Assembly (NCBI RefSeq): GCF_030814215.1
Contig: NZ_JAUSUT010000001.1
Coordinates: 3,038,001-3,102,000, forward strand
Source: Amycolatopsis thermophila
GTDB taxonomy: Bacteria; Actinomycetota; Actinomycetes; Mycobacteriales; Pseudonocardiaceae
Direction of reading: 5' to 3'
DNA: 64,000 nt
Part shown: positions 1,776 to 36,637 of the stretch, one piece after another
How positions within the stretch are numbered: position 1 is the first letter of the stretch
Layout of the letters: each line of letters starts with the position of its first letter
Position numbers and translations under genes: made by a program
Notes under the pieces: generated by a model
Database searches by the model: none
Seen by the model: the letters and a program-made list of their open reading frames with translations, nothing else
Told to the model about the DNA's origin: nothing

Positions 1776-1841
1776 CCGGCCGTGGTGGTGCAACGGGGCA
1801 CCACCCGCCGCATCAAGCCTGCGGCAGGACTGGTCAGCGCG

Positions 1842-18585: not shown

Positions 18586-18650
18586 GCGGCGTCGCTGCCA
18601 TGGACGTGCCCGGGCGCCGTTCGGGTGCTGTCACGTTAGGCCGTTTGCCG

Positions 18651-18687
18651 CCATGTGGTTCAACGGGAGGAGGTATGAACCACATGG
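18651..18687 (+). promoter_or_regulatory. Hairpin displaying a ribosome-binding site in its loop
   Basis: CCATGTGGTTCA (18651-18662) and TGAACCACATGG (18676-18687) form a perfect 12-bp stem. The 13-base loop contains GGGAGGAGG, and the first possible start codon (ATG 18675) straddles the loop/stem edge. The second possible start, GTG 18699, has its own GGAGGAG immediately after the stem. This arrangement could control translation. As a terminator it lacks a U tail. Confidence 0.6.
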
Positions 18688-18698
18688 GAGGAGTACTG

Positions 18699-18929
18699 GT
18701 GAAGAGGGTGTTCACGACAGGCGCGGTCGTCCTGGCCTCGCTCGGGGTCCTGCTGGGTAGTGCCGGCACGGCGTCCGCACAGGACCCGTACGGCAAGTAC
18801 CCGACGAAAGCCAAGTGCGAGGCGGTCGGCAAGCCGCAGGTCTACGTCGGCGGCGCGCGGGGTTACGAGTGCGTGCACCACCCGTCCAGCCCGGCGAGCC
18901 AGCGGTGGTGGCTGTACGTGATCGACTGA
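18699..18929 (+). CDS. Small secreted protein
   Basis: A 76-residue exported protein. The signal peptide VKRVFTTGAVVLASLGVL ends at ASA-QD (about residue 27). The mature part of about 48 residues has two cysteines (AKCEAV, YECVHH) that can form one disulfide and a Trp-rich end (QRWWLYVID). GTG 18699 has an ideal GGAGGAG, while ATG 18675 adds MNHMGGVL and lies in a hairpin. Similar tiny secreted proteins are frequent in Amycolatopsis and Streptomyces, and none that I know has a proven role. Confidence 0.7.
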   Translation: MKRVFTTGAVVLASLGVLLGSAGTASAQDPYGKYPTKAKCEAVGKPQVYVGGARGYECVHHPSSPASQRWWLYVID

Positions 18930-18982
18930 GCGACCTGCGCCCGGCGGCGCGGTCGGATGACCAGCGCCGCGCAGGGGCGGGG

Positions 18983-19022
18983 TGTCCGCGGCAGGATTCG
19001 AACCTGCGACACCCGGTTTATG
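18983..19022 (-). pseudogene. 3' half of a tRNA with anticodon CAT (attachment-site remnant)
   Basis: Read on the minus strand the segment gives CAT-AA, stem ACCGG, variable loop GTGTC, T arm GCAGG-TTCGAAT-CCTGC, acceptor strand CGCGGAC and discriminator A. It is therefore positions 34-73 of a tRNA-Met/Ile2-like gene with no 5' half. 27 bases (18988-19014) are identical to the tRNA-Arg gene at 35.7 kb, but the flanks differ. A 3' tRNA half bordering accessory DNA is the typical footprint of site-specific integration. Confidence 0.75.
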
Positions 19023-19309
19023 GCGGAGGATTTGCCGTTGATACTGGTCGACTGGCAAAGCTTCGCATGACCTGCCCAAATTAGTGTATGCAAATGCCGG
19101 TTGATGTACGTCTTGGGCGATCGCCGTTCATCGATTGTCCAGGGTAAACCGTGGGACTCCAGGAGCACGGTGTGCTGCAAGCGTCCGAAGCGGGGGCAGC
19201 AGGGTCATCGAGCTGCCGGCCTGATCGCCATCGCCGAGGATCGACCGACAGGTGAGCAAGGGACATCGGGCATGATCGCTCTAGCCATACTCACCGCGGA
19301 GGTTGATAG
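19023..19309. other. Gap in accessory region, no gene seen
   Basis: This 287-bp segment directly inside the tRNA fragment has lower GC than the chromosome to its left. It contains no open frame with a plausible start and family, no hairpin with U tail and no repeat that I can detect. It probably is a degraded left end of an older element. Confidence 0.4.
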
Positions 19310-19873
19310 ATGAGCGCGGCGGCAGCAAGTCACCCCGGTCTTCGCGAAGTCAAGCAGGACCTCTTGTCCACTCCCGTGCTCCTCGGACCGGCGGTCACAT
19401 GCCTCCCTAACAAGCCAGGGCTGTACGCCTGGTGGGCCAAGCCCGAGGTACTGCCTGAGTTCCCCGGGATGCCCAACCCGATGGATCCTCACGTGCGGCT
19501 GCTGTATCTGGGCATCACGACCCGCACGCTGCGCGTCCGCATCGCACGAGAGCACCTGCGCCTATCCCGGCGATCGACCCTTCGTCGCACGTTGGCCGCA
19601 CTTCTCATGGCCCATGAGTCGTACCGGACAGAGCTGGTCAAGGGGCACGTCGTACTAACGTCGGCGGATGAGGAGCGGCTTACGGCCTGGATGCAGGCAC
19701 ATCTTAGGCTGACCTGGGCTGCCGATGACGACCCCGCGCCTACCGAGAAGGCGCTTATCGCCGAACTTGGCCCTCCTCTCAACCTCACTGACGCATCGCC
19801 GGCCGCCCACCGGGAGCTTCTCAAGAGCGCTCGAAGCGCGTACCGCGCGAGTGCCGACAGTGTCGGCAAATGA
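19310..19873 (+). CDS. GIY-YIG domain protein
   Basis: A 187-residue protein with the GIY-YIG nuclease core. The first motif is PGLYAWW (about residue 38), the second LLYLGIT (about 65), followed by a helix with Arg (RVRIAREHL), and a Glu in [15 protein letters not shown] in the position of the metal-binding Glu. GGAGG precedes the ATG at good spacing. GIY-YIG proteins of this size are found as phage or plasmid nucleases and as accessory genes of unknown role. It stands alone among mobile-element relics, and its target is unknown. Confidence 0.75.
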
Positions 19874-19946
19874 CTCGCGAGAACCAATTTCCAGGCAACA
19901 TCTGCTGTCGCTGTACGTCGAAATGGGGCCGAGCAACCACGCCAAC

Positions 19947-20396
19947 CTAGGCCGAATCGTGGCGGGGCTGTTCGGCTCCCCTCGCCGAACTGGGGGCGGC
20001 GTGCTTCCAGGCCCTGCGCGCCCGGTGCCGCGTTCGCTGCGCACGTCGTGCTTGACGGCTGAGCTGATCGAGCGCGTCGAGCAGCCCCTGAGCAGGATGA
20101 CCCTCCTCGATCCAGTTCAGCGCGAGGTCAGCCCAGTCGTCCGATGGCCCTTCCAGCGCGAACCGCAGCACCAACTCCCAAGCAGGTGCAGCGTGAGCCC
20201 TGGGATGCTCACTCGTCACGCGGTTGATCTCCCGGTACGACTGCTCGAGTACGGGGAGCATCGGCATGAGCGCATCCTCCAGGGGGTGCGGGGTAGCTCC
20301 AATGCGGCCGACGACCCACCGCCCGTCGTGGGCCAGTCCGAGGTGAAGCCCATGCTGGCCGATCGACGCCACGGGTTCCCAGTCGTGGTCATCCAC
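19947..20396 (-). CDS. Hypothetical protein in accessory island
   Basis: A 149-residue acidic-then-basic protein starting at GTG 20396 (DDHDWEPVASIGQHGLHLG). It has a beta-rich N-terminus (GLAHDGRWVVGRIG), a helical middle (WELVLRFALEGPSDDWADLA) and an Arg-rich tail. Codon use looks like a normal high-GC gene. No family or active site recognised. It is convergent with the GIY-YIG gene. Confidence 0.55.
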   Translation of the reverse strand: MDDHDWEPVASIGQHGLHLGLAHDGRWVVGRIGATPHPLEDALMPMLPVLEQSYREINRVTSEHPRAHAAPAWELVLRFALEGPSDDWADLALNWIEEGHPAQGLLDALDQLSRQARRAQRTRHRARRAWKHAAPSSARGAEQPRHDSA

Positions 20397-20623
20397 GAGC
20401 TGACTCTAGTCGAGCTGCTCCCCGACGGTCCGGGAATCAGACATTGAAGCGGAACAAATCGCGACCTGCGGGAACGTCCTGATCAGGGGCCTAACCTGGG
20501 GGTTCCTCACTCGTCAGCGATGGTCGTTTGCCGTCCTCAATGACTGTCCTGACGAACGGTCGACGAACACGGCGACGGGTTGACGTCGGGTGGGCGCACC
20601 CCTTCGCGCCGCCCTCAACGAGG

Positions 20624-20923
20624 TCAACCAGTCACTGTGTAGCCCACGGCACGCAGCAGGTCGCTGAGCCAGACCAAGTGGTAGGCAACAGGCGGTTGCT
20701 GGCCCTCCACGAGTTGCCGAATGTGCTGATCGGACTCCGACAACTGACCAATGGTGAGCTCCTTTGGTTCTGCATAGACGTTGTAGAGCACATCGGGCGG
20801 GATCGACCAGAAGTAGTCTGCGTCCACCTCCACGGTGTCCCCATGCACCTCCCTGACGTGCTCGAGGAGCGTCTCGGCTGCCGCAGCCAACTGGTCAAGC
20901 CGAATCACATTTGCAGTGCTCAA
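20624..20923 (-). CDS. Hypothetical protein (about 99 aa)
   Basis: A short acidic protein with a well-structured look: VIRLDQLAAAAETLLEHVRE helix, then VEVDADYFWSIPPDVLYNVY and a helical end (HLVWLSDLLRAVG). I have seen similar orphans beside mobile genes in actinomycetes but know no function. The start is uncertain: TTG 20923 or GTG 20908. The frame stays open to 21190, but the upstream residues are not convincing. Confidence 0.55.
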   Translation of the reverse strand: MSTANVIRLDQLAAAAETLLEHVREVHGDTVEVDADYFWSIPPDVLYNVYAEPKELTIGQLSESDQHIRQLVEGQQPPVAYHLVWLSDLLRAVGYTVTG

Positions 20924-21082
20924 CCGAAATCTCGTTCTCTCGAACCAACGTCCCCTTGACCTTATTCGGGTCGCTCGCGACCAGCGGCGGAGCGACGAAA
21001 CGGCTTCTGGCCTGCTATGGGAGCAGTCGTTGATCATCGTCGTCTGCTGTGCTTCGCGGCTGTCGTGTTGCACGAATGTGGC

Positions 21083-21719
21083 ATGAGAGTCGGGGCTGGA
21101 CTGCACGGGGTGTGGACAGCTGTCATCTCTGCCGCCGCCGCGTTGCGTGGGTTTCGCTCGGTCAAATCTGGCAAGGCCATCGCGAGACAAGGCGATGGTT
21201 GAGGGAGCGTGAACGGGACGCCGAGTTGTGGCGACGAGAAGACCAGCATCGTTTCGCTAGCAAAGAGGGAACTTTATTCGGGAATTCCTCACCTCGGCCG
21301 ATTGGTGGCGCACCATTGTGGATAATATGAATGCTCAGCTGGCCGAGTTCGCCGACGATGAAGTTCGAAACAATGACTATTTGACCTGGGTGAAAGATCG
21401 CGGGTTTTCTGACATCTACGACGTCCAGCAGTCCGTTTTTCCGGCAGGCATGAATGTTCGCCTAATATGTCCACCCTCGATAGCGGAAGCGGTCGTGAAG
21501 CTCGTGGGACAGATCCATTCCGCCCAGGAAACTGCGCTAAGCGGCCATGCGCAGACAGCGAACGACTTCGCATCCAACGCGGAGTTGCTCTGGAGTGAGG
21601 CGTTCGCTCTGATGGCGGCAGATCTTGATCAATCTTCGTCCCGCGTGGATCCGCGACCTGCGTGGGCTAACGACCTGTTCCGCCCGAAACGAGCGCTTGG
21701 TGGTCAGCCCGGCGCCTGA
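21083..21719 (+). pseudogene. Frameshifted membrane-anchored coiled-coil protein
   Basis: Three frames read as one protein. A short start frame holds VWTAVISAAAALRGF (membrane helix). A second frame holds RETRRWLRERERDAELWRRE and HRFASKEGTLF (basic coiled coil), up to about 21279. A third frame begins REFLTSADWWRTIVDNMNAQ and ends at 21719. The joins each need one base changed. Short TM-plus-coiled-coil proteins with this order are common, unnamed actinobacterial genes. I treat it as broken; sequencing error cannot be excluded. Confidence 0.55.
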
Positions 21720-21847
21720 TGGCGTCTCGATCACGCCGTGTTGGGGCCGCAACCTCTGGGTCCATCCGCCGGCCGAGCTTGCCAACCTTGCGGCCCCAGT
21801 GCGGCGTGATAGCCATCAGATCAGGCGACGGGATGACCACCAAGCGC
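21693..21847. repeat. Imperfect inverted repeat with 60-bp arms
   Basis: The arm 21693-21752 and the reverse complement of 21788-21847 align over 60 bp with roughly four fifths identity, separated by 35 bp. Both ends share GCGCTTGGTGGTCA / TGACCACCAAGCGC and both centres share TTGGGGCCGCAA-like sequence. Reading outward, both arms encode related peptides (RLVVSPAPDGVSITPCWGR on plus, RLVVIPSPDLMAITPHWGR on minus). This points to an inverted duplication of part of a gene. The 21,720-22,132 interval holds no intact gene. Confidence 0.75.
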
Positions 21848-22132
21848 CCACCCTGCCAACGCAACGTGGCCTGCGGTCCCTGGTCATCCCGGAGCCTGCC
21901 TGCCCGGCGAGGACATCTCTGTTCTTTCTCTTGCGGCGGCTGTGGGGCCGCCCGGCCTTCGTCGAACCGCCACGCGGGACCGGCTTCAGCCGCACGCCCG
22001 CGTCTGGCGGTTCGACAGGATGAGGGCCGGATCAGCGGCCCCGCAGGGCCGCCTTGAACAAGTAAGGAAACCTTGAACACGCCCGCTCCGGGTATGGGCC
22101 TCGGCGGATCCGGGACTGCTGCCTAACCCGGG

Positions 22133-22554
22133 CTACGCGCGGAGCCGTACCGCCGCGCTCGCCTTGTCGTCATGCCGTTTGGCTCGGGGAACTGGCGCGC
22201 GTCGGGGTCCCGGTCGCGTTCCCACTGCTGGCAGCGGTCGAGGATGGCGGAAAGCTCGCTGGGACCGGCTTGGGCGATTGCCGGCCAGTCGGTGAGTCCA
22301 ACGTGGGTCATCGTGTTGTACGCGCCATCAGTAGCGAGGACTGCCCAGGACACCTCGGACACCCGCCGACGTTCGACGAGCGCATGGTGAGCGGCTTCCG
22401 CTGATGCTTCCGCGATCCAGAACCCCCGGGGTCGGTTCCGGCGCTCCCCCTGCTGAGTCTGCAACTGGCGCAGCAAAGCATGGTGAGTCTCGTCGTATCC
22501 CCCCGCCAACCGCTGCCGATACTGGCGCCGCGGGGCGAGGTCCAGTTCATCCAT
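22133..22554 (-). pseudogene. C-terminal remnant of a PP2C-like phosphatase
   Basis: The readable part MDELDLAPRRQYRQ to the end carries the C-terminal signature of actinobacterial PP2C-like proteins: GFWIAEASAEAAHHAL, WAVLATDGAYNTM, and HDDK after a one-base shift. In the long frame the end reads QFPEPNGMTTRRARR. Removing the shift gives PRAKRHDDKASAAV and the stop at 22133. The N-terminal two thirds with the metal-binding GDG region are absent. It abuts an integrase fragment in head-to-head orientation. Confidence 0.7.
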
Positions 22555-22575
22555 CCGCTCGTCCGTGAGGACCCC

Positions 22576-22734
22576 ATCGGCGGCCTCACGGCGCGCGAGA
22601 TCGCTGACTACCTTGGCCACGAGCGGATCAGCACGACCCAGGAGGACTACATGGAGCGCGGAGTCGTGGGGGAGAGCGCCGGCCCCGCGCTGGCGGCTCG
22701 TCCTGCCGTCGAGAAGCCCAAAAACGAGGGTTAA
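22576..22734 (+). pseudogene. C-terminal fragment of a tyrosine recombinase
   Basis: Fifty-two residues with the end of a phage-type integrase: LTAREIADYLGHERISTTQE (the His/Arg-side helix and LGH) and DYMERG, where Tyr is in the position of the nucleophile. Everything N-terminal is missing. It lies 52 bp from a tRNA-Arg attachment repeat, where an integrase gene belongs, so it is a relic of an earlier element at the same site. Confidence 0.7.
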
Positions 22735-22750
22735 GCATGGGGCCGAACAG

Positions 22751-22790
22751 CACAAAGCCCCTGGTCAATGGATCTACCAGGGGCTTTGTG
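22751..22790. terminator. Strong hairpin, the displaced terminator of tRNA-Arg
   Basis: CACAAAGCCCCTGGT (22751-22765) pairs perfectly with ACCAGGGGCTTTGTG (22776-22790), a 15-bp stem with a 10-base loop. It touches the 46-bp attachment repeat that copies the 3' end of tRNA-Arg. On the minus strand the order is tRNA 3' end then hairpin, as for a tRNA terminator. The intact tRNA is now 12.9 kb away. Confidence 0.8.
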
Positions 22791-22832
22791 CCCCCGGCAG
22801 GATTCGAACCTGCGACACCCGCTTTAGGAGAG
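22787..22832. repeat. attL, 46-bp direct repeat
   Basis: Identical over 46 bp to 35682-35727. It contains the tRNA-Arg 3' portion from the anticodon loop through the discriminator (TGCCCCCGGCAGG ... CTTTAGGAGAG on plus). Identity stops abruptly on both sides. Confidence 0.92.
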
Positions 22833-23291
22833 GGCTGTTCTGCTGGCTTCAGCCGCTCTACCTGGACTTCTGTTGTCGCAATCTCCGCACCACGTCCCGT
22901 CATCGTCGCTCGCGTCCGTGGTTCGCACCATGATGCGCACCACGGGGCGGATGCAGCGCGTGGACGGGTCCTTGGAGTTCTGGGATAGCACGCGGCGAGG
23001 TTGTGGCACCCGCATCGCTCCAGGGGGTGGGGCCTGGACGCGGCCTCGTGTGCTTTCGCGACGAAGCAACGAGGGCTTGTCGACCTTATTTGCCGGCTGC
23101 GGATGTCCTGACTCTGATCCTGAGAAGACGCTGGGTTGCGGGCCAGCTTGACAGTCTTCTTCCCGCGGTTCCCGCAGCCCTATCGGTCGTTGCCAGTTGT
23201 AACACGACCTCCTGTCAAACGTATATCTTGTACGTTCGTGCGAGTGATCACCGACCACTCGTTAGCAACTTGTGATCTTGGGGAGGAAACT
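22833..23291. other. Left end of the AICE without a gene
   Basis: This 459-bp segment contains the arm-type site at 22917-22930 and a promoter-like region before the DUF5343 gene with the interrupted palindrome ACGTA-N7-TACGT at 23219-23235. No coding frame is credible. It is likely to be integrase and excisionase binding DNA plus the cargo promoter. Confidence 0.5.
22917..22930 (+). promoter_or_regulatory. Putative integrase arm-binding site, left
   Basis: CGTGGTTCGCACCA occurs 85 bp inside attL and again, in the same orientation, 53 bp inside attR (35616-35629). A variant, GATGCGCACCACG, follows directly. Matching short sites inside both ends of an element are what tyrosine integrases of the lambda type bind with their N-terminal domain. 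Confidence 0.55.
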
Positions 23292-23921
23292 GTGGCAGAA
23301 ACGTTGCCTTATATGAACTCAACTGGACTAGTATCCAAGATCCTGGACAAGATCAAGGAGGCGAAGACTCCTGATCGGTTCTCGCAAGATTTCCTTGGAA
23401 CGGTTCTCGGCTTCTCTAGTGGAAGTGCGAAGCCGTTCATTCCGCTCGCAAAACGATTGACGCTTATCAGGTCGGACGGAACGCCGAGTGAGCTCTATCG
23501 CAAGTTTCGTGGGAGCGAAGACGAGTCCAAGGCGGCAATTGCGCAGGCTATTCGCATCGGCTACGCCCCCTTGTATAAGCGTAATGAATTTGCCCATGAG
23601 CTGGACAAGAAGAAGCTGGACGGGCTCATTCGCGAGATCACTGGCATAGAAGATGGAAACAGCGTCCTGCGTGCTATCACTGGAACTTTTGAAGCCCTTA
23701 AGCAGTATGCCGACTTTGATGCGGTGACGGCCGATAAGGTGTCGACCCATTCAGTGGAGGACGCGGAGGATTCAAGCCGGGTGTCGGAGAATTTAGGAAA
23801 GAGCGAAAGTACCCCTACGCCGCTCCGCTTCGGATACACGATAAATATTAATCTTCCCGACACCAATGATATCGCGGTCTTCAACGCCATCTTTAAGAGC
23901 ATGAAGGAGCATCTGCTGTGA
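23292..23921 (+). CDS. DUF5343 protein, first gene of a two-gene cargo module
   Basis: A 209-residue protein whose first 150 residues match the DUF5343 pattern: LPYMNSTGLVSKILDKIKEA, then TPDRFSQDFLGTVLGF, DGTPSELYRKFR and RNEFAHEL. The domain looks like a winged-helix/helical unit used as an adaptor. A polar linker precedes a short C-terminal segment (YTININLPDTNDIAVFNAIF). GTG start with GGGAGG. It overlaps the following HEPN gene by four bases (GTGA). Codon use is clearly less GC-biased than neighbours, indicating recent acquisition. Function unknown; a sensor or regulator for the HEPN partner is a guess. Confidence 0.8.
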   Translation: MAETLPYMNSTGLVSKILDKIKEAKTPDRFSQDFLGTVLGFSSGSAKPFIPLAKRLTLIRSDGTPSELYRKFRGSEDESKAAIAQAIRIGYAPLYKRNEFAHELDKKKLDGLIREITGIEDGNSVLRAITGTFEALKQYADFDAVTADKVSTHSVEDAEDSSRVSENLGKSESTPTPLRFGYTININLPDTNDIAVFNAIFKSMKEHLL

Positions 23922-24505
23922 GTGCTCACGAGAGACTTCAGTTGATGCACATTAGTCGGCAGATATTCCAGGTGGAGCTGGAAGATATTGCCACAAGGTA
24001 TGGTCTCGACCCGATTTCTTCGCCCGAATCAAAATCTGCCGAGGAAGAGGAGGAAAGTTACTATCTTCAGTATCCGGCTGAGTTGCGTCGTCAAGCCGTG
24101 GTGATGTCGCAATACTACCGGATCTTTTACTGTCTTGAGAATTCCATCCGTGATCTTGTCGAGTCGCAACTGGAGGAAGCATACGGCGAGAACTGGTGGG
24201 AGGATCATGTGCCGAATAATATCAAGTCATCAGTTGAGGGGAACAAGAACCGCGAGCAGGACAACGGTGTGACCCTGCGCTCTTCACATCCCATTGACTA
24301 TACGACTTTCGGCGAGCTGGGCGAGATCATAAAAAGCAATTTTGACATCTTTGGTGCAACGTTTAATAGCAAGAGAGGACTAGAGAAAGTGATGGCAAGC
24401 TTGAATCTGCTGCGAGGTCCAATCGCGCATTGCACTCAACTGGCCGAAGATGAGGTATTGCGTCTTCATTTGACTGTTAGGAGCTTCAATCGTCTGATGG
24501 AATAG
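23918..24505 (+). CDS. Swt1-like HEPN-domain protein
   Basis: A 195-residue helical protein. The HEPN signature R-x4-H is present as RGPIAH (Arg 166, His 171) after a hydrophobic helix (EKVMASLNLL), the layout of HEPN ribonucleases and of the Swt1-type HEPN domain. Earlier, YYRIFYCLENSIRDLVESQL and WWEDHVP match the helical core. The start overlaps the DUF5343 stop by four bases, so the two are coupled and probably form a complex or a toxin-antitoxin-like or defence pair. The 3' end overlaps the convergent regulator gene by 20 bp. Low GC like its partner. Confidence 0.75.
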   Translation: MSAHERLQLMHISRQIFQVELEDIATRYGLDPISSPESKSAEEEEESYYLQYPAELRRQAVVMSQYYRIFYCLENSIRDLVESQLEEAYGENWWEDHVPNNIKSSVEGNKNREQDNGVTLRSSHPIDYTTFGELGEIIKSNFDIFGATFNSKRGLEKVMASLNLLRGPIAHCTQLAEDEVLRLHLTVRSFNRLME

Positions 24506-25946
24506 ATTTGCTGCTGCGTAGGCGATCTAGGCCAGAAGTGAATGCGAAGAAACCTTCGTTGTTCCAGGACTGCATGCTTTCTGGGCATGTCATAAAGTCG
24601 GTGTTGCTACTTGTGTAGATTTTTAGTCGTCTGGCTTCCCAGTTCGCCTCAATGTGTCCACCAAACTGCGACCAGAAGTCCATGTTGCTGATCGTGAGCA
24701 GAAATCCAAACTCGTAGTTTCCGCTTACCAGGTTAATTCCGAAGCCGGTGCACTCGACCCGCAATCCATCGGTCGTTAAGAGTGACCGCATGGGTTTTGA
24801 CAGGCGAGCTAGATGCATAGGGAGAGCAGCCCGCGGTGCGCTGACGGTGTTGTCGAGTTCTGTGCGGCCGAACAGTTCCTCTTCAAGTTCGCGCAGCAGT
24901 GAGTTGCGAAGTGACGTGTCGGCGTGCACGTCAGTCATGGGCTGATGAAAGCCTTTGGGAATCACCGTCAACTGTCTCGCAGCATTTACGACGAGATGTG
25001 AACGCTCCTGAACGAGCAGAGCGAAATCGGCTGTACCGTACGTATCGGCTGATCGGGCAATGGCAGACAGCGCTAGGACGCCTCCGGCGCAAAGTCTGGA
25101 CGATAGGTCCACCGCTGACGCGAGTGACGGTAGGTATTTGTCTCGTAATGGAAGTGAACCCGTCTTGACGGGCTGACCGTCCGCCAGGGCGTCGAGTAGT
25201 TCATTTTCAAGGAGATCCAGTGTCAGCGCGTATTCGAGGAAGGGTGCAACTCCAACGGTGCCACGTATTGCGCTGGCGCGGATGTCCACGTCGAGCAGGC
25301 GATAGGTCTGCTCATTGGTGAGGCGGACACCAGCGGCTTCTACCTCCGCGAGTCGTTCCAGGGCAGCTGCGGGCACAGGATCAGCGGTCGGTTCAGAGGT
25401 GGTCGGAGCGAGGGCTAGCGCGTCGGTGGTCTCGTTGAGTGGGATGTGGAGGTCGAGCCAGTCCGGTCGCGTGAGGATGCTGGTTTCGAGAGCCTGACCG
25501 CCGAAGCGGGCTGTGTAGAGGCTGTAGTCCGGATCGCTGCCGTAGTAGGCGCGGAGCGCGGCGACCACGTCGGTCCGGCTCACGCGGTCGCGTCGGGCCT
25601 GGCGGGTGGGTAGCTCGCGACGCGTCTTGGGCAGGCGTGCCGTCACGCGCCGGGCGCTCGTTCCGGGCTTCCAGTTGAGTCGTTCGTCGAGCCAGGTGCA
25701 GGCTGCCTCGACGTCTGGGCTGAGGGTGTCACGGTCCGACACGGGGTCACCGTCGATCAGTGCGCGCAGTTGCTCTGGTGTATGCCGGAGGAGTCGCGCT
25801 AGCTTCGGTCGCAGGTACGGGAGTGGGGCGTAGTCGCCGGCCTCCCAGCGGATGACCGTCGAGCGGTCGACGTTGAGAGCGGCAGCCAGGCTTTCCTGCG
25901 TGTACCCGGCTGCCTTGCGCGCCGTTGCCAGCTCCGCCCGTCTCAT
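24486..25946 (-). CDS. HTH regulator with Nudix-like C-terminal domain (Pif-like, paralog 1)
   Basis: A 486-residue protein. An XRE-type helix-turn-helix is at the N-terminus (MRRAELATARKAAGYTQESL, DRSTVIRWEAGDY). After a linker comes a large domain with the conserved blocks RLCAGGVLAL, VIPKGFHQP, RELEEELFG and ECTGFGINLVSGNYEF. RELEEELFG resembles the core of a Nudix box, but the Gly/Glu spacing is not canonical. The pSAM2 immunity protein Pif has a Nudix motif and lies near korSA, and this gene sits back to back with a KorSA-like gene, so an immunity or signalling role is plausible. Paralog of the gene at 31.2 kb. GGAGGGG precedes ATG 25946. Confidence 0.7.
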   Translation of the reverse strand: MRRAELATARKAAGYTQESLAAALNVDRSTVIRWEAGDYAPLPYLRPKLARLLRHTPEQLRALIDGDPVSDRDTLSPDVEAACTWLDERLNWKPGTSARRVTARLPKTRRELPTRQARRDRVSRTDVVAALRAYYGSDPDYSLYTARFGGQALETSILTRPDWLDLHIPLNETTDALALAPTTSEPTADPVPAAALERLAEVEAAGVRLTNEQTYRLLDVDIRASAIRGTVGVAPFLEYALTLDLLENELLDALADGQPVKTGSLPLRDKYLPSLASAVDLSSRLCAGGVLALSAIARSADTYGTADFALLVQERSHLVVNAARQLTVIPKGFHQPMTDVHADTSLRNSLLRELEEELFGRTELDNTVSAPRAALPMHLARLSKPMRSLLTTDGLRVECTGFGINLVSGNYEFGFLLTISNMDFWSQFGGHIEANWEARRLKIYTSSNTDFMTCPESMQSWNNEGFFAFTSGLDRLRSSKSIPSDD

Positions 25947-26134
25947 CACGACCCCTCCCCATGCCAGTCCGGCCACGATAGCAACGATCGGAGCGTTTCC
26001 GCAGGTAAAGCGCAGGAGTGCAACATTCGTGCACCGAGACTCCGACGTTTCTGCTCTGTCCCGTGCCTTCTTCTCCGGCTTGAGTCGGACGTGTGATGAC
26101 GCGGTGGGAGTCGGCGGGACGAGGTGATGAGCAG

Positions 26135-26665
26135 GTGGCAGATCCGATTCTGCTCGTGCGGCCGGTCGCGGGTTCGGTTGGTGAGCGCGAGCGCCTGGTG
26201 CACGTGGTGGGGCGCTCCGGGAAAAGCGACCGGCCGGGGGTGCTGAGAGCTTTGTGCGGCGCAGAGTTCCACGCGGATGAGCTGGACTTGCTTGACCGCG
26301 TGACCGGGATGCCCTGCGAGGACTGCTTGCGACTCGTCCCGTTGCCCCAGCCTGTTGAGCGCAACGAGGTCGCCGGTGAGCCGGCCTTTCGGCCCGAGCC
26401 AACGGGCTACGTCTACGAGCAGTTGGCCGACCACCTCGCTCAGCTCATCGAGACAGGCAGGCTCAGGCCGGGTACGCCACTACCCGCAGAACGCAGGCTT
26501 GCACAGCAGTACGACGTGTCGCTCGGCACTGCCCGGCACGCTACCCAGCTTCTCCGGGCCAGGGGACTCGTCGTGACGGTGCCCGCGAAGGGCACGTTCG
26601 TCGCCGACGCCGTGCCTGAGGGAGGGAATCGGCGAGACCTCGGCGATCAGTCCGAAACGCCGTGA
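26135..26665 (+). CDS. GntR-family regulator (KorSA-like)
   Basis: A 176-residue protein. The C-terminal half is a GntR winged helix (YVYEQLADHLAQLIETGRL, then LPAERRLAQQYDVSLGTARH and GLVVTVPAKGTFVA). The N-terminal half holds CGAEF and CEDCLR, a possible zinc knuckle. KorSA-type GntR proteins repress transfer genes of AICEs, and this gene is convergent with the transfer operon and divergent from the Pif-like gene. The start is uncertain: GTG 26135 or an upstream codon at 26093. Confidence 0.8.
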   Translation: MADPILLVRPVAGSVGERERLVHVVGRSGKSDRPGVLRALCGAEFHADELDLLDRVTGMPCEDCLRLVPLPQPVERNEVAGEPAFRPEPTGYVYEQLADHLAQLIETGRLRPGTPLPAERRLAQQYDVSLGTARHATQLLRARGLVVTVPAKGTFVADAVPEGGNRRDLGDQSETP

Positions 26666-26743
26666 TCGGGCAGCCCACGAGCAACCGCCGATCAGCTTCC
26701 CTGCGGGGCATCCGCCCTGGTCAGGTCGGGGAAGAGCGGAAGG

Positions 26744-26775
26744 GAGCGGGGTGGGGAGAACTCCCCACCCCGCTC
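26744..26775. terminator. Bidirectional hairpin terminator
   Basis: GAGCGGGGTGGGGAG and CTCCCCACCCCGCTC form a perfect 15-bp stem around AA, between the convergent GntR and FtsK/TraB genes. There is no U tail on either strand, but its position and strength make it the best terminator candidate in the element. Confidence 0.8.
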
Positions 26776-26789
26776 TCATGTCCCCGCGC

Positions 26790-28859
26790 CTACTCGGAAC
26801 CGCCCCGGCGGCTTAGCGCCTCCCCAACGTCTTCCGCACGAATCACCTGCACGCCGCCTGACTTGCGCGGCCCGAAGCCGTGTTGGGCGAGCGTCGCCTT
26901 GAGGTCCGAGAAGGTCCAGCCTTCGTACTCGGCCGGGTTGTGCTCGGCGAGGCGGGCGAGCACAACCCTGGTCGGCACTCGTCGCTCGCTGCGCATCACC
27001 GTCGCCACATCCGCCAGGTGATCGACTGGCACGGCCTCGATCGCTGGGCGAGCTGTGATCTCGCGGCCGTGCTCGCGCACGATCGCCAAGGCACGGTGAA
27101 TCACCGGTGTCACCATGTCGACCTCGTCCTCAAAGGGCACGTAGAACGTGCGGATCAGCTCGAAGGCTGCATCGGTCACGCCAACCGCGACGCAGGTTCC
27201 GCGGTCGGTCTTCATGCGGAGGTCGGTCGCGCGGATGCCTGCCCGGTACTTGCCCGCACCGAGCAGACCGTCATTGGCGATCTGGTCGGCTACTGAGAAC
27301 GCCACGCCGCACGAGACGTTCCGGGTGACTTCTCTAGGAATCGAGTCCTTGGTAGGCGATTGCGTCGCCAACAGGAGCACGATCCCGTACTTCCGGCCTC
27401 GCTTGATCACCCTGACCGCCAGCTCGGCCGCGCGCTTGCCGAACTTGGGGTGCTGGAACAGTTCGTGGCACTCGTCGATCGCGCACACCAGCGGGTGCAA
27501 GCCCAAGCCAGCCTTGTCCGCAAGCTTCCGTGACACCTTGGGTGGTCGGCCGGGTTGCTCGCCGAGCACCTTGCCGCGCCGCTCCATCTCCGTCGACAGA
27601 TCTTCGAGCGCGGCCACAGCGGCTTCGGCCACTGCGTCGTCCATGCCCATCCGATAGCGGGTCGCGCGCGGGTCGAACGGGTCGAAGTCCGGCGACTCGC
27701 CCATGACGAAGATCCACAGCTCGGCTGTCGGATCGAGCGCCGCACCCAGCAGCAGCGTCCGGAGCGCCGCGGACTTGCCCTGTCCCGGCCGTCCGCCGAT
27801 CAGCCAGTTCGCCTCGATCAGCGGTGCGTTGACGACCACGCCGCGCTGGGTGAGGCCGAACGGGACGCCGTCGAACACGTCGAGCTGCCCGCCATGTTGG
27901 AGCGGCCATTCCCCGGCTCCGCCAGCGAGTGCACCCTTGTCGGCCACCCACAGGTCAAGCACGCCGGCCTCGTCGCCTTCGGTCGGCCAGGTCTCCAGCT
28001 TCGCCCGTCCGAGGTTCGCGGCGAGCTTGTCGCGCCGGTCGGCCACCATGTCAGCCGTCGTCCCCAGCGGAAGCCGCACCTGCACGAACGTGCCGTTGCC
28101 GTCCCGCCGGGCAGGGATGCTGTAGAGCAGCTCACCTCCGTTCTTGAAGAAGGAGTTCAGCGGTGCGATGCCCAGATGCCCGAGTGCCTTCGACACCATG
28201 CGTTCGTCGATCCACGAATCCGCGTCGTCGCGGTCGGGCCTGCTGAGCCAGCTCGCGCCAGGCTCCTTATCGCGGCCCTCCCAAGCGGCCGCGACGATCC
28301 AGACAACCGGACCGACGAGGAGCAGCGCAGACGCAGCGGTCTTCGCCACCTCCCAGCCAGTACCTATCAGGTTCAGCAGTTGCGCGAGCCAGGGCCACAT
28401 GTCCTCGCGCGCCATCCACGAGTCGACGCACCACAACAAGAGGCCAACCGGCGCGACGATGGCCGCCAACACGGCGCAGCGGTGCAGGACGATCGCGAGG
28501 CGGCCCCAACGAGCCTTCGAGTCTGCGCGGATCAGTTCCTGAGCTTGCCGCCGCGCTTCCGAGTCGCCGGCAACCCGTGCGGCGCGGGCATCAGCTCGCA
28601 GGTCGCCGTACGTTGCCCACGTCCATGCCTTCGCCATCCAGCGCCCATGGCCCCGCAGTACGAACCAGGCCAGGCGCAGAAGGTCCCGCGGCAGCTTCCG
28701 GAAGCGGTATGCGGCTACCGCTCGCACGTGAGCAGTCCCCGGCGCACCCCACCACTTGGCGAGCGCCGATCGTGGCCCAGAGCCGGGCTCTTCGTCGGTG
28801 ACAATCTCCGCCTCGAACACCTTCGGTTCGAGTGCACCGCGTTCATGGCGATCGTTCAT
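26790..28859 (-). CDS. FtsK/SpoIIIE-type DNA translocase (TraB-like conjugation protein)
   Basis: A 689-residue motor that in AICEs moves double-stranded DNA between mycelial cells. The basic N-terminal region is followed by two membrane helices (about 126-146 and 165-190), the ATPase core with Walker A GGRPGQGKS (Lys 362) and Walker B VCAIDECHELF, and arginine-rich IKRGRKYGIVLLLATQSPT. A winged-helix-like C-terminus (SDLKATLAQHGFGPRKSGG) may read the clt/8-bp repeats. ATG 28859 follows AGGAGG and overlaps the upstream gene stop as ATGA. The frame is open to 29555, but that extension is the shadow of the upstream gene. Confidence 0.88.
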   Translation of the reverse strand: MNDRHERGALEPKVFEAEIVTDEEPGSGPRSALAKWWGAPGTAHVRAVAAYRFRKLPRDLLRLAWFVLRGHGRWMAKAWTWATYGDLRADARAARVAGDSEARRQAQELIRADSKARWGRLAIVLHRCAVLAAIVAPVGLLLWCVDSWMAREDMWPWLAQLLNLIGTGWEVAKTAASALLLVGPVVWIVAAAWEGRDKEPGASWLSRPDRDDADSWIDERMVSKALGHLGIAPLNSFFKNGGELLYSIPARRDGNGTFVQVRLPLGTTADMVADRRDKLAANLGRAKLETWPTEGDEAGVLDLWVADKGALAGGAGEWPLQHGGQLDVFDGVPFGLTQRGVVVNAPLIEANWLIGGRPGQGKSAALRTLLLGAALDPTAELWIFVMGESPDFDPFDPRATRYRMGMDDAVAEAAVAALEDLSTEMERRGKVLGEQPGRPPKVSRKLADKAGLGLHPLVCAIDECHELFQHPKFGKRAAELAVRVIKRGRKYGIVLLLATQSPTKDSIPREVTRNVSCGVAFSVADQIANDGLLGAGKYRAGIRATDLRMKTDRGTCVAVGVTDAAFELIRTFYVPFEDEVDMVTPVIHRALAIVREHGREITARPAIEAVPVDHLADVATVMRSERRVPTRVVLARLAEHNPAEYEGWTFSDLKATLAQHGFGPRKSGGVQVIRAEDVGEALSRRGGSE

Positions 28860-29545
28860 GACAGGGCCTCCTGTCCTTCGACCTCGGCCCTGAGCGCGTC
28901 CGCCACACGAGGCGACAACCCGCGTGAACATCCCGTGGCTTGCCGCACCCACGCGGGCGTCACCTCGACCCCGGGTGACCACGCCTCGCGTGCATCGGAC
29001 AGGTAGTCCGCGAAGAGCTTCCGACCCGCGCGCCGCTGAGGCGGTCGCCTCTCGTCGACAGCGCGCGGCTTGTACTCGGCAGACACCGTGGCGGCTTCGA
29101 TCAGCTTCTCGCGCAGGTCGGTCACGGCCTCGGCTGCCGTGAACACCAGCAGCGGCGGCACGGAGTGCAGCACGATTCCGGACCACGAACCTGCCGCGAA
29201 CGAGGACCAGGTGTTCATGACATACGTGGCGGCGAGCGTGAACCACTTCGCACGCCGCACCCACGAGCCCATGCGGACGCCGTGCCGGGCCGTGACCTGC
29301 TCGGCACGCAGGATCGCGATCAGCACCAGCGAGACGGTGGGATCGAGCAGCCAGGCGGCCAGCCATGTCAGCGACCAGGCAGGCGCGCCCGCGGCGGCGA
29401 AGTGCTGGACGTTGGTCATCGTGAAGGCCAGTCCGAGGGTGATCCCGGTCCAGCACAACCGGTCCACCTGGACACGGACGCGCTCGATGTCGTGGCCGGC
29501 GGGTGGCCGCCCGTAGGCGGCCACCCTGTTCAGCTCGCGATTCAT
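28856..29545 (-). CDS. Four-helix membrane protein of the transfer operon (DUF2637-like/Spd-like)
   Basis: A 229-residue integral membrane protein with four hydrophobic segments (about 30-55, 62-85, 108-126 and 130-150) and a basic cytosolic C-terminal tail of about 70 residues (RRPPQRRAGRKLF). Position directly upstream of and overlapping the translocase gene fits the Spd or DUF2637 proteins that help plasmid spread through the hypha. The assignment rests on topology and context. It overlaps its neighbours on both sides by four bases. Confidence 0.65.
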   Translation of the reverse strand: MNRELNRVAAYGRPPAGHDIERVRVQVDRLCWTGITLGLAFTMTNVQHFAAAGAPAWSLTWLAAWLLDPTVSLVLIAILRAEQVTARHGVRMGSWVRRAKWFTLAATYVMNTWSSFAAGSWSGIVLHSVPPLLVFTAAEAVTDLREKLIEAATVSAEYKPRAVDERRPPQRRAGRKLFADYLSDAREAWSPGVEVTPAWVRQATGCSRGLSPRVADALRAEVEGQEALS

Positions 29546-29859
29546 CGACGACCACCCCGGACGTCCACGGTGACGACGGTCAACGCCTTCGTCAGTCCGT
29601 GGCCCGCGAACAGCGCCGGAATTCCGAGCACGGCCAACAAGAGCCCGTGGTTGCCCGGTGCGGCCACGACGACGACCCACTGCACGCCCACGATCAGCGC
29701 GGCCGTGAACAACACCCGGCCGAAGAGCGACAGCAAGCGGCTGCTCGCTCGGGACGCTTCGAGCGTGCGCCGCCTCTTCCACGAACGGATCCGCCACAGG
29801 AGGAACCAGCCGGCCAGAATGCCCAAAGCCACGAGGACTTGCGTTGGCGTGAGGTTCAT
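29542..29859 (-). CDS. Small two-helix membrane protein of the transfer operon
   Basis: A 105-residue protein. The first helix is TPTQVLVALGILAGWFLLW, then a basic loop (RIRSWKRRRTLEASR) and one or two further helices (LFTAALIVGVQWVVVVAA; LLLAVLGIPALFAG). Its stop overlaps the next start by four bases and its own start overlaps the WhiB-like gene, so the operon is translated as a chain. A role in intramycelial spread is inferred from position. Confidence 0.65.
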   Translation of the reverse strand: MNLTPTQVLVALGILAGWFLLWRIRSWKRRRTLEASRASSRLLSLFGRVLFTAALIVGVQWVVVVAAPGNHGLLLAVLGIPALFAGHGLTKALTVVTVDVRGGRR

Positions 29860-30224
29860 CGCTGCTCACCTCCGTTCCGGGCAGTGCGACGTGCGCTCCA
29901 GATCGCATACAGAGCCCGGCGGTCGTCTTCCGACAACGCTCCCCAGACTCCGAGCGTGAACGGGCCGGCGGTGCGCAACTCCAACTCCAGACAGGCCAGC
30001 TTGGCTGCACAGCCCGCGCAGATCACCGCGGCCAGCTCGCGGTCGGACAGGTCATCGCCGGTCCACTCCGGGGCGCTGCCGGACGAGTAGAGCCACATGC
30101 ACGAGCCGTCGCGGCGCACGATGTCCTCGAGCACGTCGTCCGGGACGTCGGCGTAGCGGTCAAGCTCGACTGCGAGTGCCGTGAGGTAGTCCGCGAAATC
30201 CTCGAAGGCGTCCGGGTTCACCAC
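29856..30224 (-). CDS. WhiB-like iron-sulfur regulator
   Basis: A 122-residue Wbl protein. The four cluster cysteines are in GSCMW (about 42), ICAGC (69 and 72) and ACLELE (78), followed by the turn motif GVWGALSED and a basic tail (SARRTARNGG) for DNA contact. Wbl proteins bind 4Fe-4S clusters and sigma factor region 4. Being inside the transfer operon it may couple element transfer to redox state or development (inference). Confidence 0.8.
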   Translation of the reverse strand: MVNPDAFEDFADYLTALAVELDRYADVPDDVLEDIVRRDGSCMWLYSSGSAPEWTGDDLSDRELAAVICAGCAAKLACLELELRTAGPFTLGVWGALSEDDRRALYAIWSARRTARNGGEQR

Positions 30225-30538
30225 GACTCACCTCCGGTGAGCCGGGCAACCTCGCGGGCCGTGCGGCGTTCAGCGGCGATGCGGCTGGGATCGACGACGC
30301 CACCCGTCGCGTCCACCTCCGCGATCAGTCGATCAAGCGCGACTGCCGGGATGATGTACCGAGAGCGAAGCCGGACCGCGGGGAAATCGCCGTCCCGGAT
30401 GATCCGGTAGAGCGTCGACGGCCCGACGCGGAGGAGCCTGGCTGCCTCCCGGACCGTGTAGAAGGCCGGTCGCGAATCGCGGTTATGAGTGGTTTCTGGA
30501 ACTGCATTCTGAGAGCGTTCCGTGTTGGTGTTTTCCAT
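30218..30538 (-). CDS. Excisionase-family helix-turn-helix protein
   Basis: A 106-residue DNA-binding protein. The central MerR/excisionase-like motif is FYTVREAARLLRVGPSTLYR, followed by DFPAVRLRSRYIIPAVALD, the wing used by Xis and AlpA proteins. It is the first gene of the transfer operon rather than the neighbour of the integrase gene, which is unusual: it could be Xis or an activator of the operon. It overlaps the WhiB-like gene by seven bases. Confidence 0.75.
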   Translation of the reverse strand: MENTNTERSQNAVPETTHNRDSRPAFYTVREAARLLRVGPSTLYRIIRDGDFPAVRLRSRYIIPAVALDRLIAEVDATGGVVDPSRIAAERRTAREVARLTGGESW

Positions 30539-30595
30539 GACTTCGATTCAAGGAAAAACCACGGTCGCCAACCATGCATGACCAGTGCACTGCAA

Positions 30596-30623
30596 ATGCA
30601 GAACCAATGCAGGAGTAATGCAG
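30596..30623 (+). repeat. Three 11-bp iterons in the divergent promoter region
   Basis: ATGCAG occurs at 30596, 30607 and 30618, exactly one helical turn apart, each followed by two to five variable bases. ATGCATG and GTGCACTGCA lie just upstream. The 295-bp interval 30539-30833 between the excisionase-like and XRE genes holds no other feature. Likely binding site for one of the two flanking regulators; a replication or transfer origin is possible. Confidence 0.65.
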
Positions 30624-30833
30624 GTTCCTGTTTTCCGTCGGATTTGAGGCGGGTTGGAGCTCGTTCGACGACTCGGTCGGAACGAACTCCTAACACTGAT
30701 GGCGATGATTTCATCGAAATATCAATGAAGTCAGCGATGGTGCGAGCAAGGCTTGCCTAGCTGCGGCGTGATGCCGCTGAAACCCTTGGAGATCCGCTAA
30801 CGTCGGCGCTGCAGCAGGAGCGCGGAGGAGCAC

Positions 30834-31202: not shown

Positions 31203-31205
31203 GGC

Positions 31206-33133: not shown

Positions 33134-33157
33134 ATACCGGATGCTTGGACTTCTGGG

Positions 33158-34021: not shown

Positions 34022-34037
34022 TTTGCCTCACGCTCTT

Positions 34038-35603
34038 TCAATGCGTCTTCCTTGATTCTATTTCGGTGACGGTCGCAAAACCGTTTGCGCTGTTCGCGTT
34101 TGCTACAACGGCAGGTCGACCGCGGCTGGCTATGACCAAGCCTGCATCCTTCAGCGCCGCGATCGCTCTGTGCGCTGTGCCTACGCTGACGTGGTAGCGG
34201 CCGGCGATTTCGGTCACGGGTGGCAATCGGTCACCGGTCCGGAGTACCCCGGCTGTAATCGCTCCGCGGAGGTCAGTCGCGATTTTCTGGTAGGGGTTCG
34301 CAGTCTCGGGCTCAAGCGTCGATCGGGGGTTGCCCTCGATGTCGAGCACGATTGGCGCTTGGGGCATCCGAGCGGTGAAGTTGCCCGCCGCCTTCTGGTC
34401 TGCCTCGGCCACCCAGGCCGAGTACACGCGGAGCGTGGTAGCGCCCCCGCCGCCGTGGCCAAGTCGGCCGGCGACCGTGCGGACGTCGACACCGGATGCG
34501 ATCAGCTCGGTAGCCGAGTAGTGGCGGAGCTGGTGCAGGTGCATGTCCCAGCCGAGCTTTTCGCACATGCGCCGGTAACGCTGGGAGACAGACGACGGCT
34601 TCAACCAGGTCGAATGATCGACCGAAGGGGAGAAGACCCGGCCGGTCTTCTCGATGGTTGTACCGACGATCTGGGCTTCTGCCTCGCAATGCTGACGATA
34701 GGCGCGGAGCAGGCCGACTGTCTCCGCGTTCAGGGCGATACGGCGTTGCTGGTGGGTCTTGGTGTCCTTCTCCCACGTCTTCGCGCCGTCCTGGGCGATG
34801 CTGCTGCGGATCCAGATCACTGCGTTGTCGAGGTCGAGGCGGTCCCAGCGTAGTGCGCACAGCTCACCGCGGCGTGCGCCGGTGGTCATCGCGAGCCAGA
34901 CGAACATGCCCCATCGGAGGTCCTTGAACGCCTCGTTGACGATCGCGGCTGCCTCGTCTGGCGTCGGTGGCTGCGGGTCCGGGGTGGCGTTCGATGGTGC
35001 GTCGGCCTGGTCGAGCGGGTTGACGGTGATCCACTTCCAGCGCATCGCGTCCTTGAGCGCGCCGCTCAGGCACCAGTGGATCTTCCGGATCGTGCCATCG
35101 GAGAGCGGCTTGCACTTGTGCACTCGGCACTTGTCCGTGCACTCGTGCTCACCTGCTACCCCGTGCTCGATGAACCTCCGGCCGCCGCAGTGGGTTCGGC
35201 ACGTTCGGAGGATCTTGTAGAAGGAATCGAAGGTCTCGCCGTCGAGGCGCGATAGGGGCTGCTTGCCCAGCAGCGGCCGGATGTGCGTCCGGATGACGCT
35301 CTCGTACCGCTGCCTCGTCGTGGTGTCGACGTGCAGCAGCTCCAGGTACCGGTCCATGAGCTGGTTCACCGTCGCGCTCGTGCGCGGGTTACGGCGCTCG
35401 TTGACCTCGTTGACCAGCCGGATGCGGACCTTCTCGGCTTCCTTCTCAGCCTGCGGTCCGGCCGGCACGGTCTCGCGGAGGTAGTGGCGCTTACCGCTCA
35501 GCGGGTCGACACCGGCGTAGACCTTCACGCGCAACGCGCCGCTCGGCAGCTTCTCCACCTGGCCTCGCGAGCGCTTCTGAGCACGGCCCCCAGCAGTGGT
35601 CAT
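34038..35603 (-). CDS. int: Tyrosine integrase with fused GntR-type winged helix
   Basis: A 521-residue site-specific recombinase for the tRNA-Arg site. The N-terminal arm-binding part is followed by a core-binding domain with a Cys/His-rich insertion (CRTHC, HECTDKCRVHKCK). The catalytic domain has TGARRGELCAL (Arg), HQLRHYSAT (His-x2-Arg), LGHGG and the nucleophile Tyr 394 in LRVYSAW. From about residue 435 a complete GntR winged helix follows (NPYQKIATDLRGAITAG, LPPVTEIAGRYHVSVGTAHR), which ordinary AICE integrases lack. Fusion to a DNA-binding domain may give self-regulation. The gene lies next to tRNA-Arg and reads into the element. Confidence 0.92.
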   Translation of the reverse strand: MTTAGGRAQKRSRGQVEKLPSGALRVKVYAGVDPLSGKRHYLRETVPAGPQAEKEAEKVRIRLVNEVNERRNPRTSATVNQLMDRYLELLHVDTTTRQRYESVIRTHIRPLLGKQPLSRLDGETFDSFYKILRTCRTHCGGRRFIEHGVAGEHECTDKCRVHKCKPLSDGTIRKIHWCLSGALKDAMRWKWITVNPLDQADAPSNATPDPQPPTPDEAAAIVNEAFKDLRWGMFVWLAMTTGARRGELCALRWDRLDLDNAVIWIRSSIAQDGAKTWEKDTKTHQQRRIALNAETVGLLRAYRQHCEAEAQIVGTTIEKTGRVFSPSVDHSTWLKPSSVSQRYRRMCEKLGWDMHLHQLRHYSATELIASGVDVRTVAGRLGHGGGGATTLRVYSAWVAEADQKAAGNFTARMPQAPIVLDIEGNPRSTLEPETANPYQKIATDLRGAITAGVLRTGDRLPPVTEIAGRYHVSVGTAHRAIAALKDAGLVIASRGRPAVVANANSANGFATVTEIESRKTH

Positions 35604-35615
35604 GGTGCGAGGATA

Positions 35616-35629
35616 CGTGGTTCGCACCA
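35616..35629 (+). promoter_or_regulatory. Putative integrase arm-binding site, right
   Basis: Second copy of CGTGGTTCGCACCA, just upstream of the integrase start. TGGTGCGA at 35603-35610 forms an inverted partner, so the integrase could also repress its own promoter here. Confidence 0.55.
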
Positions 35630-35681
35630 CAAGCGGCACCACGTGCAAGCGGTTTGATCAGCAAAAACCGCCTCTGAGCTG

Positions 35682-35727
35682 TGTGCCCCCGGCAGGATTC
35701 GAACCTGCGACACCCGCTTTAGGAGAG
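35682..35727. repeat. attR, 46-bp direct repeat within tRNA-Arg
   Basis: Second copy of the 46-bp repeat. Here it is part of the complete tRNA-Arg gene, so the element restores the tRNA 3' end on integration. Confidence 0.92.
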
Positions 35728-35756
35728 CGGTGCTCTATCCCCTGAGCTACGAGGGC
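35684..35756 (-). tRNA. tRNA-Arg(CCT)
   Basis: Complete 73-base cloverleaf on the minus strand: acceptor GCCCTCG/CGGGGGC (one G-T pair), D arm with GCTCAGGGGATAGAGC, anticodon stem CCGCT/AGCGG with loop CTCCTAA (anticodon CCT, reads AGG), variable GTGTC, T arm GCAGG-TTCGAAT-CCTGC, discriminator A; CCA is not encoded. It is the integration target of the AICE. Confidence 0.95.
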
Positions 35757-35942
35757 TGGCTGCCCCAGACTAGCGGGTCCGGCGATCCCGCAGGACCGTG
35801 ACCTAGGCCTCGGCCGTGATCGGCCCCGTCGATAGGTGCGACCACCGGGGTGAGCAGCGTATCGACTCCTGAGCTACCACTGGGTAACCTTCCGTGATCG
35901 GGACGCGGACACCCCGCTCCACCGACCGTTCGGAGGGCTTAG

Positions 35943-36596: not shown

Positions 36597-36637
36597 CTTC
36601 TTAGGCGGGTCTCAGCACTGTCGGCAACACTGTCTAC

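What the first reader, a model, noticed from the sequence alone, without database searches (positions are those of the whole stretch)
23292..24505. DUF5343-HEPN gene pair as a candidate defence or toxin-antitoxin system
Two coupled genes (GTGA overlap) of low GC sit at the end of an AICE, a typical cargo place. The HEPN protein has the RGPIAH ribonuclease motif and DUF5343 resembles an adaptor domain of unknown function. I know of no described system with this composition, though I cannot search. A HEPN toxin kept in check by DUF5343, or an abortive-infection unit, is the best hypothesis.
Basis: inference. Interest (0 to 1): 0.75.

Follow-up and report, generated by a model that had tools for sequence, protein, structure and literature searches.

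The report
Mobile HEPN–DUF5343 two-gene defence candidate
Two overlapping genes at the end of an integrated mobile element encode a likely RNA-cutting HEPN protein and a DUF5343 partner; the same pair is found in distantly related bacteria and looks like a toxin-antitoxin-like phage-defence module that a catalogue already lists as a candidate.

Summary
DUF5343 (23292-23921) and a Swt1-type HEPN gene (23918-24505) overlap by GTGA and are 50% GC in a 69% GC window. They lie about 450 bp inside one end of a 12.9-kb tRNA-Arg-integrated element that is missing from that site in five of eleven congener loci compared.

The pair is conserved: in 78 of 80 relatives (13 named phyla) the HEPN gene follows on the same strand; the other two contigs end there. 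R166 and H171 are invariant in 86 of 86 sequences. In 349 genomes this HEPN family was not found without DUF5343, whereas DUF5343 was found without it. The pair is poorer in GC than its flanks in 73 of 76 loci and lies within 300 bp of a tRNA/tmRNA 3' end in 8 of 80. Two related prophage contigs carry it beside a CI-like repressor.

The composition is not new: PADLOC-DB lists it as candidate PDC-M34. I found no paper naming it.

Best reading: a TA-like or abortive-infection module. The HEPN RNase would be restrained by DUF5343's conserved C-terminal tail, with the folded domain sensing a trigger. Neutralisation, trigger and RNA target are inferred.

The parts
23292..23921 (+). DUF5343 gene (PDC-M34A), 209 aa, GTG start
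23918..24505 (+). Swt1-type HEPN gene (PDC-M34B), 195 aa, GTG start
   Evidence: AF2 mean pLDDT 92.4
23918..23921 (+). GTGA stop/start overlap (translational coupling); 59 of 84 measured relatives overlap too, commonest spacings -8 (24), -4 (12), -11 (9)
23904..23909 (+). AAGGAG, SD-like site of the HEPN gene inside the DUF5343 gene
   Evidence: read from sequence
24413..24430 (+). RGPIAH codons (R166 to H171), HEPN Rx4H motif
   Evidence: R and H invariant 86/86
23829..23918 (+). C-terminal tail of DUF5343 (residues 180-209), proposed HEPN-docking element behind a variable linker (148-179)
22783..22841 (.). att copy: tRNA-Arg(CCT) 3' end repeat at the left end of the element
35678..35736 (.). 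att copy inside the intact tRNA-Arg(CCT) gene (35683-35756, - strand) at the right end of the element
34038..35648 (-). tyrosine integrase of the element, with a C-terminal GntR-type domain
30218..30538 (-). HTH_17 protein, excisionase-like
26790..29555 (-). ORF with FtsK/SpoIIIE translocase domain (start codon uncertain)

Best explanation
This is a mobile two-gene immunity module of the PDC-M34 kind. SHOWN: the two genes form one coupled unit kept together in 13 named phyla; in the window it lies on an integrated element that congeners lack at that site; related copies lie in prophage contigs; the HEPN Rx4H residues are kept without exception in the rows examined. LIKELY: it spreads by horizontal transfer. 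INFERRED: the HEPN protein is a ribonuclease effector acting as a dimer. DUF5343 is made first and holds it inactive by docking its C-terminal strand-helix tail on it. The N-terminal DUF5343 domain resembles multi-winged-helix DNA-binding domains (SspB, the type IIS enzyme PaqCI) and senses a phage- or mobile-element-derived trigger, probably nucleic acid or a DNA-associated state. On triggering, the HEPN RNase is released or activated, cuts RNA and stops growth before phage is released (abortive infection).
Confidence: 0.55

Rival explanations
1. DUF5343 is the activator or targeting subunit, not an antitoxin. HEPN is harmless alone; the DUF5343 N-terminal domain binds phage nucleic acid and brings or switches on HEPN there, as a sensor-effector complex.
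For: The DUF5343 fold resembles DNA-binding SspB and PaqCI, and DUF4007/SspB and BrxA are described as multi-HTH DNA-binding parts of defence systems (PMC12839542, passages read). The same DUF5343 scaffold sits beside several HEPN-like proteins, as a sensor module would.
Against: This HEPN family was not found without DUF5343, which fits a needed antitoxin at least as well. Gene order (partner first, coupled) is the usual antitoxin-toxin order (general knowledge). The structural match is weak.
Confidence: 0.22
2. A plain addiction toxin-antitoxin pair that stabilises the integrated element and has no dedicated phage-defence role.
For: Position at element ends next to att or tRNA sites; a two-gene unit without a recurrent third gene among 618 called neighbours.
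Against: PADLOC lists the pair among phage-defence candidates. Some immediate neighbours match defence models (DarG, ThsB/TIR, BrxH, DpdF, GajA/AriA; 139 of 234 neighbours scanned, no control set). Prophage copies beside a CI-like repressor are in a place typical of prophage immunity genes (general knowledge).
Confidence: 0.18
3. The pair is a regulatory RNA- or DNA-binding complex; HEPN serves as a binding module without cleavage.
For: A DUF4145-like partner class lacks the Arg; eukaryotic Swt1 HEPN is considered possibly inactive (PMC3710099, passages read).
Against: R166 and H171 are invariant in 86 of 86 of the window's own class, hard to explain without catalysis.
Confidence: 0.05

Closest known systems
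PDC-M34 (PADLOC-DB 2.0.0 phage-defence candidate, models PDC-M34A and PDC-M34B)
   Same: DUF5343 matches PDC-M34A over positions 1-207 of 208, HEPN matches PDC-M34B over 29-188 of 192; two adjacent genes.
   Different: Nothing contradicting found. PDC-M34 is a computational candidate; no paper naming it was found. The preprint cited as the source of the PDCs (doi 10.1101/2024.01.29.577857, cited in PMC12988326) was not read.
Tha, HEPN anti-phage system of Staphylococcus aureus prophages (PMC11087260, abstract and passages read)
   Same: Prophage-encoded HEPN effector with an Arg-X4-His motif; non-specific RNase with an Abi-like outcome.
   Different: Tha has its own N-terminal region and is triggered by minor tail proteins; its companion ith is labelled Xis in a legend, not DUF5343. 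No homology tested.
AbiF/AbiD HEPN with ncRNA (8vz6; PMC12165695 passage)
   Different: No AbiF-type Rfam match in window 18500-37000 or in 12 relatives; here the partner is a protein.
HEPN-MNT (HepT-MntA) toxin-antitoxin
   Different: The partner is DUF5343, with no nucleotidyltransferase match.
Panacea (PanA) antitoxin network (PMC10440598, passages read)
   Same: Folded domain plus a linear C-terminal neutralising element, with partner exchange, is the design proposed here.
   Different: Different domain; the partners seen here are HEPN-like. No homology tested.
SspB / DUF4007 and BrxA-type multi-HTH DNA-binding proteins
   Different: Profile comparison not significant; no SSP or BREX gene was recognised among the element ORFs scanned (not every ORF).

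Membership tests
PDC-M34 | Both component models match | tested here: met
   PDLC04589 1.4e-51 and PDLC04592 6.2e-34
PDC-M34 | Components adjacent | tested here: met
   4-nt overlap in the window; 78 of 80 relatives
PDC-M34 | Anti-phage activity | not testable with these tools
   No assay; no paper found naming it
HEPN superfamily, Swt1-like | Profile match over curated cut-off | tested here: met
   PF18731 49.1 bits, cut-off 27.5
HEPN superfamily, Swt1-like | RxxxxH motif | tested here: met
   RGPIAH; R and H 86/86
HEPN superfamily, Swt1-like | HEPN helical-bundle fold | tested here: met
HEPN superfamily, Swt1-like | Ribonuclease activity | not testable with these tools
   -
Type II toxin-antitoxin | Two small coupled genes | tested here: met
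Type II toxin-antitoxin | Toxin gene not found without antitoxin gene | tested here: met
   5 of 5 HEPN genomes in 349 have adjacent DUF5343 (one, G396, was the search centre); 7 of 7 assessable viral loci, 8 found
Type II toxin-antitoxin | Protein neutralises toxin | not testable with these tools
   -
Type II toxin-antitoxin | Operator for autoregulation | tested here: inconclusive
   More upstream inverted repeats than shuffles (27 of 85 with arms >=7, 9 expected), but no shared sequence seen and some look like terminators
HEPN-MNT (HepT-MntA) | MNT nucleotidyltransferase partner | tested here: not met
   Only PF17278 matches the partner, at E up to 1
AbiF system | Associated ncRNA family of Rfam | tested here: not met
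   No such match at E<=1 in window 18500-37000 or at gathering score in 12 loci; an undescribed RNA is not excluded
SspB/DUF4007 | Sequence-profile homology | tested here: inconclusive
AICE | tRNA att sites, integrase, FtsK-type transfer protein | tested here: met
AICE | Replication initiator | tested here: inconclusive
   None recognised among the element ORFs scanned; not every ORF was scanned

The most novel reading that the evidence does not exclude
DUF5343 is a HEPN-controlling adaptor platform. A folded sensor domain of the SspB/BrxA/type IIS multi-winged-helix kind is joined by a disordered linker to a docking tail. That platform has taken on at least three unlike HEPN-type partners: Swt1-type RGPIAH/RNFVAH, an RNECAH type, and a DUF4145-like type without Arg. 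It would be a HEPN-specific counterpart of the Panacea antitoxin network that turns DNA sensing into RNA cleavage.
Probability: 0.3. Interest if true: 0.72.

Novelty: new member of a known kind. Interest (0 to 1): 0.45.

Why it matters
It turns an anonymous catalogue entry (PDC-M34) into a testable design: a conserved two-residue HEPN active site, a conserved detachable tail that should bind it, and a candidate sensor domain. If right, one swap-in tail explains how unlike HEPN effectors come under one control protein, and the module is a compact abortive-infection unit of mobile elements and prophages found in 13 named phyla.

Tried and rejected
Single-sequence tblastn of DUF5343 (window, Citrobacter and prophage versions) against plasmids and GenBank phages: no match. 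The window HEPN found four distant plasmid hits that I did not examine. E. coli genomes: no DNA match to the Citrobacter pair. phmmer against PDB: none for either protein. HEPN alone as query in viral contigs: nothing. Foldseek for both models: nothing significant.

A third conserved gene was looked for among 618 neighbours called by a simple longest-ORF method. The largest recurrent family was an integrase in 4 loci, so it was rejected. PADLOC/Pfam tallies of neighbours cover 139 of 234 neighbours of 100 aa or more within two genes, without a control set; only the first 25 of 64 and of 84 families are shown, most of the Pfam ones being single housekeeping families, so I claim no enrichment.

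hhalign between the HEPN partner classes: no similarity. The RNECAH and DUF4145-like proteins are called HEPN-like only on sub-threshold Pfam DUF4145 hits (L004 3e-4, L128 2e-3, L130 4e-4; L003 has none) and, for the first class, the motif and the 43% identity of L003 to L004. I tried to show that the tail goes with these classes in fresh samples. Viral contigs gave nothing. In 279 genomes one of three DUF4145-like hits (G422, L157) is fused to its own N-terminal domain, with a different neighbour and no DUF5343, so the tail is not obligatory for that class.

PADLOC model PDLC04592 matched 18 of 396 genomes. G000 and G165 have the pair, G345 has fragments of both, and the other 15 have no PF17278 match; these weaker hits were not studied.

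Upstream palindromes: inconclusive. Co-evolution of the pair was not attempted (too few sequences; linked genes).

Full report
WHAT IS THERE. Window 23292-23921 (+) encodes a 209-aa DUF5343 protein and 23918-24505 (+) a 195-aa HEPN protein. The stop and start overlap in GTGA, and each gene has an SD-like site, the second one inside the first gene. Pfam: PF17278 E=1.6e-45 and PF18731 (HEPN_Swt1) E=7.9e-13. PADLOC-DB 2.0.0: PDC-M34A E=1.4e-51 and PDC-M34B E=6.2e-34. So the composition is catalogued as a candidate phage-defence system. No paper in the searched library contains DUF5343, or PF17278, PF18731 or PDC-M34. A 2026 study says that most PDCs lack experimental validation (PMC12988326, passages read); the preprint it cites as their source was not read.

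THE ELEMENT. A 59-nt copy of the tRNA-Arg(CCT) 3' end lies at 22783-22841 and again inside the intact gene at 35678-35736 (93%). Eleven same-genus loci (L139-L149) were compared with the window. In five (L140-L144), 131-266 bp of the left flank ending at 22841 run directly into the sequence right of 35678, overlapping in the att repeat: an empty site. A sixth (L145) matches there only the att-sized stretch 22776-22841, and the remaining five show no left-flank join. The element therefore spans about 22.84-35.68 kb. It carries an integrase (34038-35648, -), an HTH_17 protein and an FtsK/SpoIIIE protein. The pair sits about 450 bp inside its left end. GC is 50.2% for the pair, 62.9% for the element, 69.3% for the window.

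THE PAIR IS A UNIT. A scan of GTDB genome contigs with a four-sequence DUF5343 alignment confirmed 97 loci and kept the best 80 (L029-L108). In 78 of 80 a HEPN match lies on the same strand within 200 bp downstream (in L102 and L107 cut off by the contig end; L078 and L107 with gaps of 122 and 103 nt to the first start codon); the other two contigs end 32 and 51 nt after the DUF5343 stop. Of 84 loci measured, viral contigs included, 59 overlap: -8 in 24, -4 in 12, -11 in 9. NCBI ranks put the 80 loci in 13 named phyla (51 Pseudomonadota, 8 Actinomycetota, others with 1-4; 3 without rank), resting on submitters' titles, many of them MAGs. On a quick tree of 83 concatenated pairs, phyla are mixed (starred branches force at least 9 changes for Pseudomonadota) but still more clustered than shuffled labels (16 changes, mean 22.6), so transfer is likely, not proven. 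The window groups with Candidatus Planktophila (support 93), then with Citrobacter youngae and three viral contigs (95).

PARTNER EXCHANGE. PF17278 sampled by genome gave 6 of 396 genomes in the window's phylum and 10 of 349 in the phylum of the Citrobacter locus (9 above cut-off). The genes next to them: Swt1-type HEPN in G000, G165, G396, G415, G550, G607 and G707 (RGPIAH, RAPIAH, RASIAH or RNFVAH); an RNECAH protein in G146 and G225; a DUF4145-like protein lacking the Arg in G734, G434 and G603; no such partner seen in G237, G590 (a partial match) and G677 (below cut-off); G345 is a fragment with a stop. G000 and G396 were search centres. The tail pattern is present in the 8 DUF5343 proteins with a HEPN-like partner that were aligned, and not recognisable in L005 (G237). 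The HEPN status of the last two partner classes rests on sub-threshold DUF4145 hits and, for one, the motif; profile comparison with the Swt1 class was blank.

DEPENDENCE. Searching the same 349 genomes with the HEPN profile (E<=1e-8) found exactly the five that have the Swt1-type pair. In viral contigs, 7 of 8 HEPN hits have DUF5343 upstream and the eighth starts at the contig end. So this HEPN family was not seen without DUF5343, whereas DUF5343 was seen without this HEPN. Broader Swt1-type HEPNs do occur alone (15 of 18 genomes with a PDLC04592 match have no PF17278 match). The dependence is what a toxin that needs its partner would show, though a two-subunit sensor-effector would show it too.

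MOBILE SETTING. Of 20 tRNA/tmRNA genes in the 80 loci, 8 lie within 300 bp of the pair (1.2 expected, P=1.1e-5), all with the 3' end facing the pair; at 500, 700 and 1000 bp the excess is weaker but remains (P 4e-4, 7e-4, 2e-3). The pair is poorer in GC than its flanks in 73 of 76 loci, by 11 points on average (4 loci with short flanks dropped). In prophage contig L114 it lies between integrase/excisionase and a CI-like repressor, with CII-like and primase genes beyond; the closely related L115 has the same arrangement around the pair. L028 carries it about 1 kb from terminase genes, and the Citrobacter copy is one gene from an integrase next to a tRNA-Arg(CCT).

CONCLUSION. The two-gene unit and the kept active site are shown (about 0.95). 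Spread by mobile elements is very likely. An RNase effector is likely (0.8). A defence role is likely (0.7). Neutralisation by DUF5343 through its tail is a fair bet (0.5), DNA sensing a guess (0.3).

Noticed in passing
window 33158-34021 (+): Second HEPN-like gene at the other end of the same element: 287 aa, 51.7% GC, N-terminal hydrophobic helix (about residues 28-52) and C-terminal RNSIAH; Pfam HEPN_RiboL-PSP E=0.005 and HEPN_Swt1 E=0.009, both below cut-off. A possible membrane-anchored HEPN defence gene.
   Followed up: partly
window 34038-35648 (-): The tyrosine integrase carries a C-terminal GntR-type DNA-binding domain (E=3.4e-13, residues 452-515).
   Followed up: no
window 24486-26402 (-) and 31206-32789 (+): Two ORFs in the element on opposite strands share a 55-nt stretch 85% complementary; the first has an XRE-type HTH with a weak NCBIfam telomere_Tap match. 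Unexplained duplication.
   Followed up: no
window 18977-19035 to 22783: A third, 73% copy of the tRNA-Arg 3' end left of the element suggests an older, decayed integration next to it.
   Followed up: no
L157 (G422) 1495-2223 (-): A relative of the DUF4145-like partner class fused to its own N-terminal domain, without DUF5343 beside it.
   Followed up: no
L129/L133 (G434): The DUF5343 gene is split over two ORFs while its downstream partner ORF stays open.
   Followed up: no
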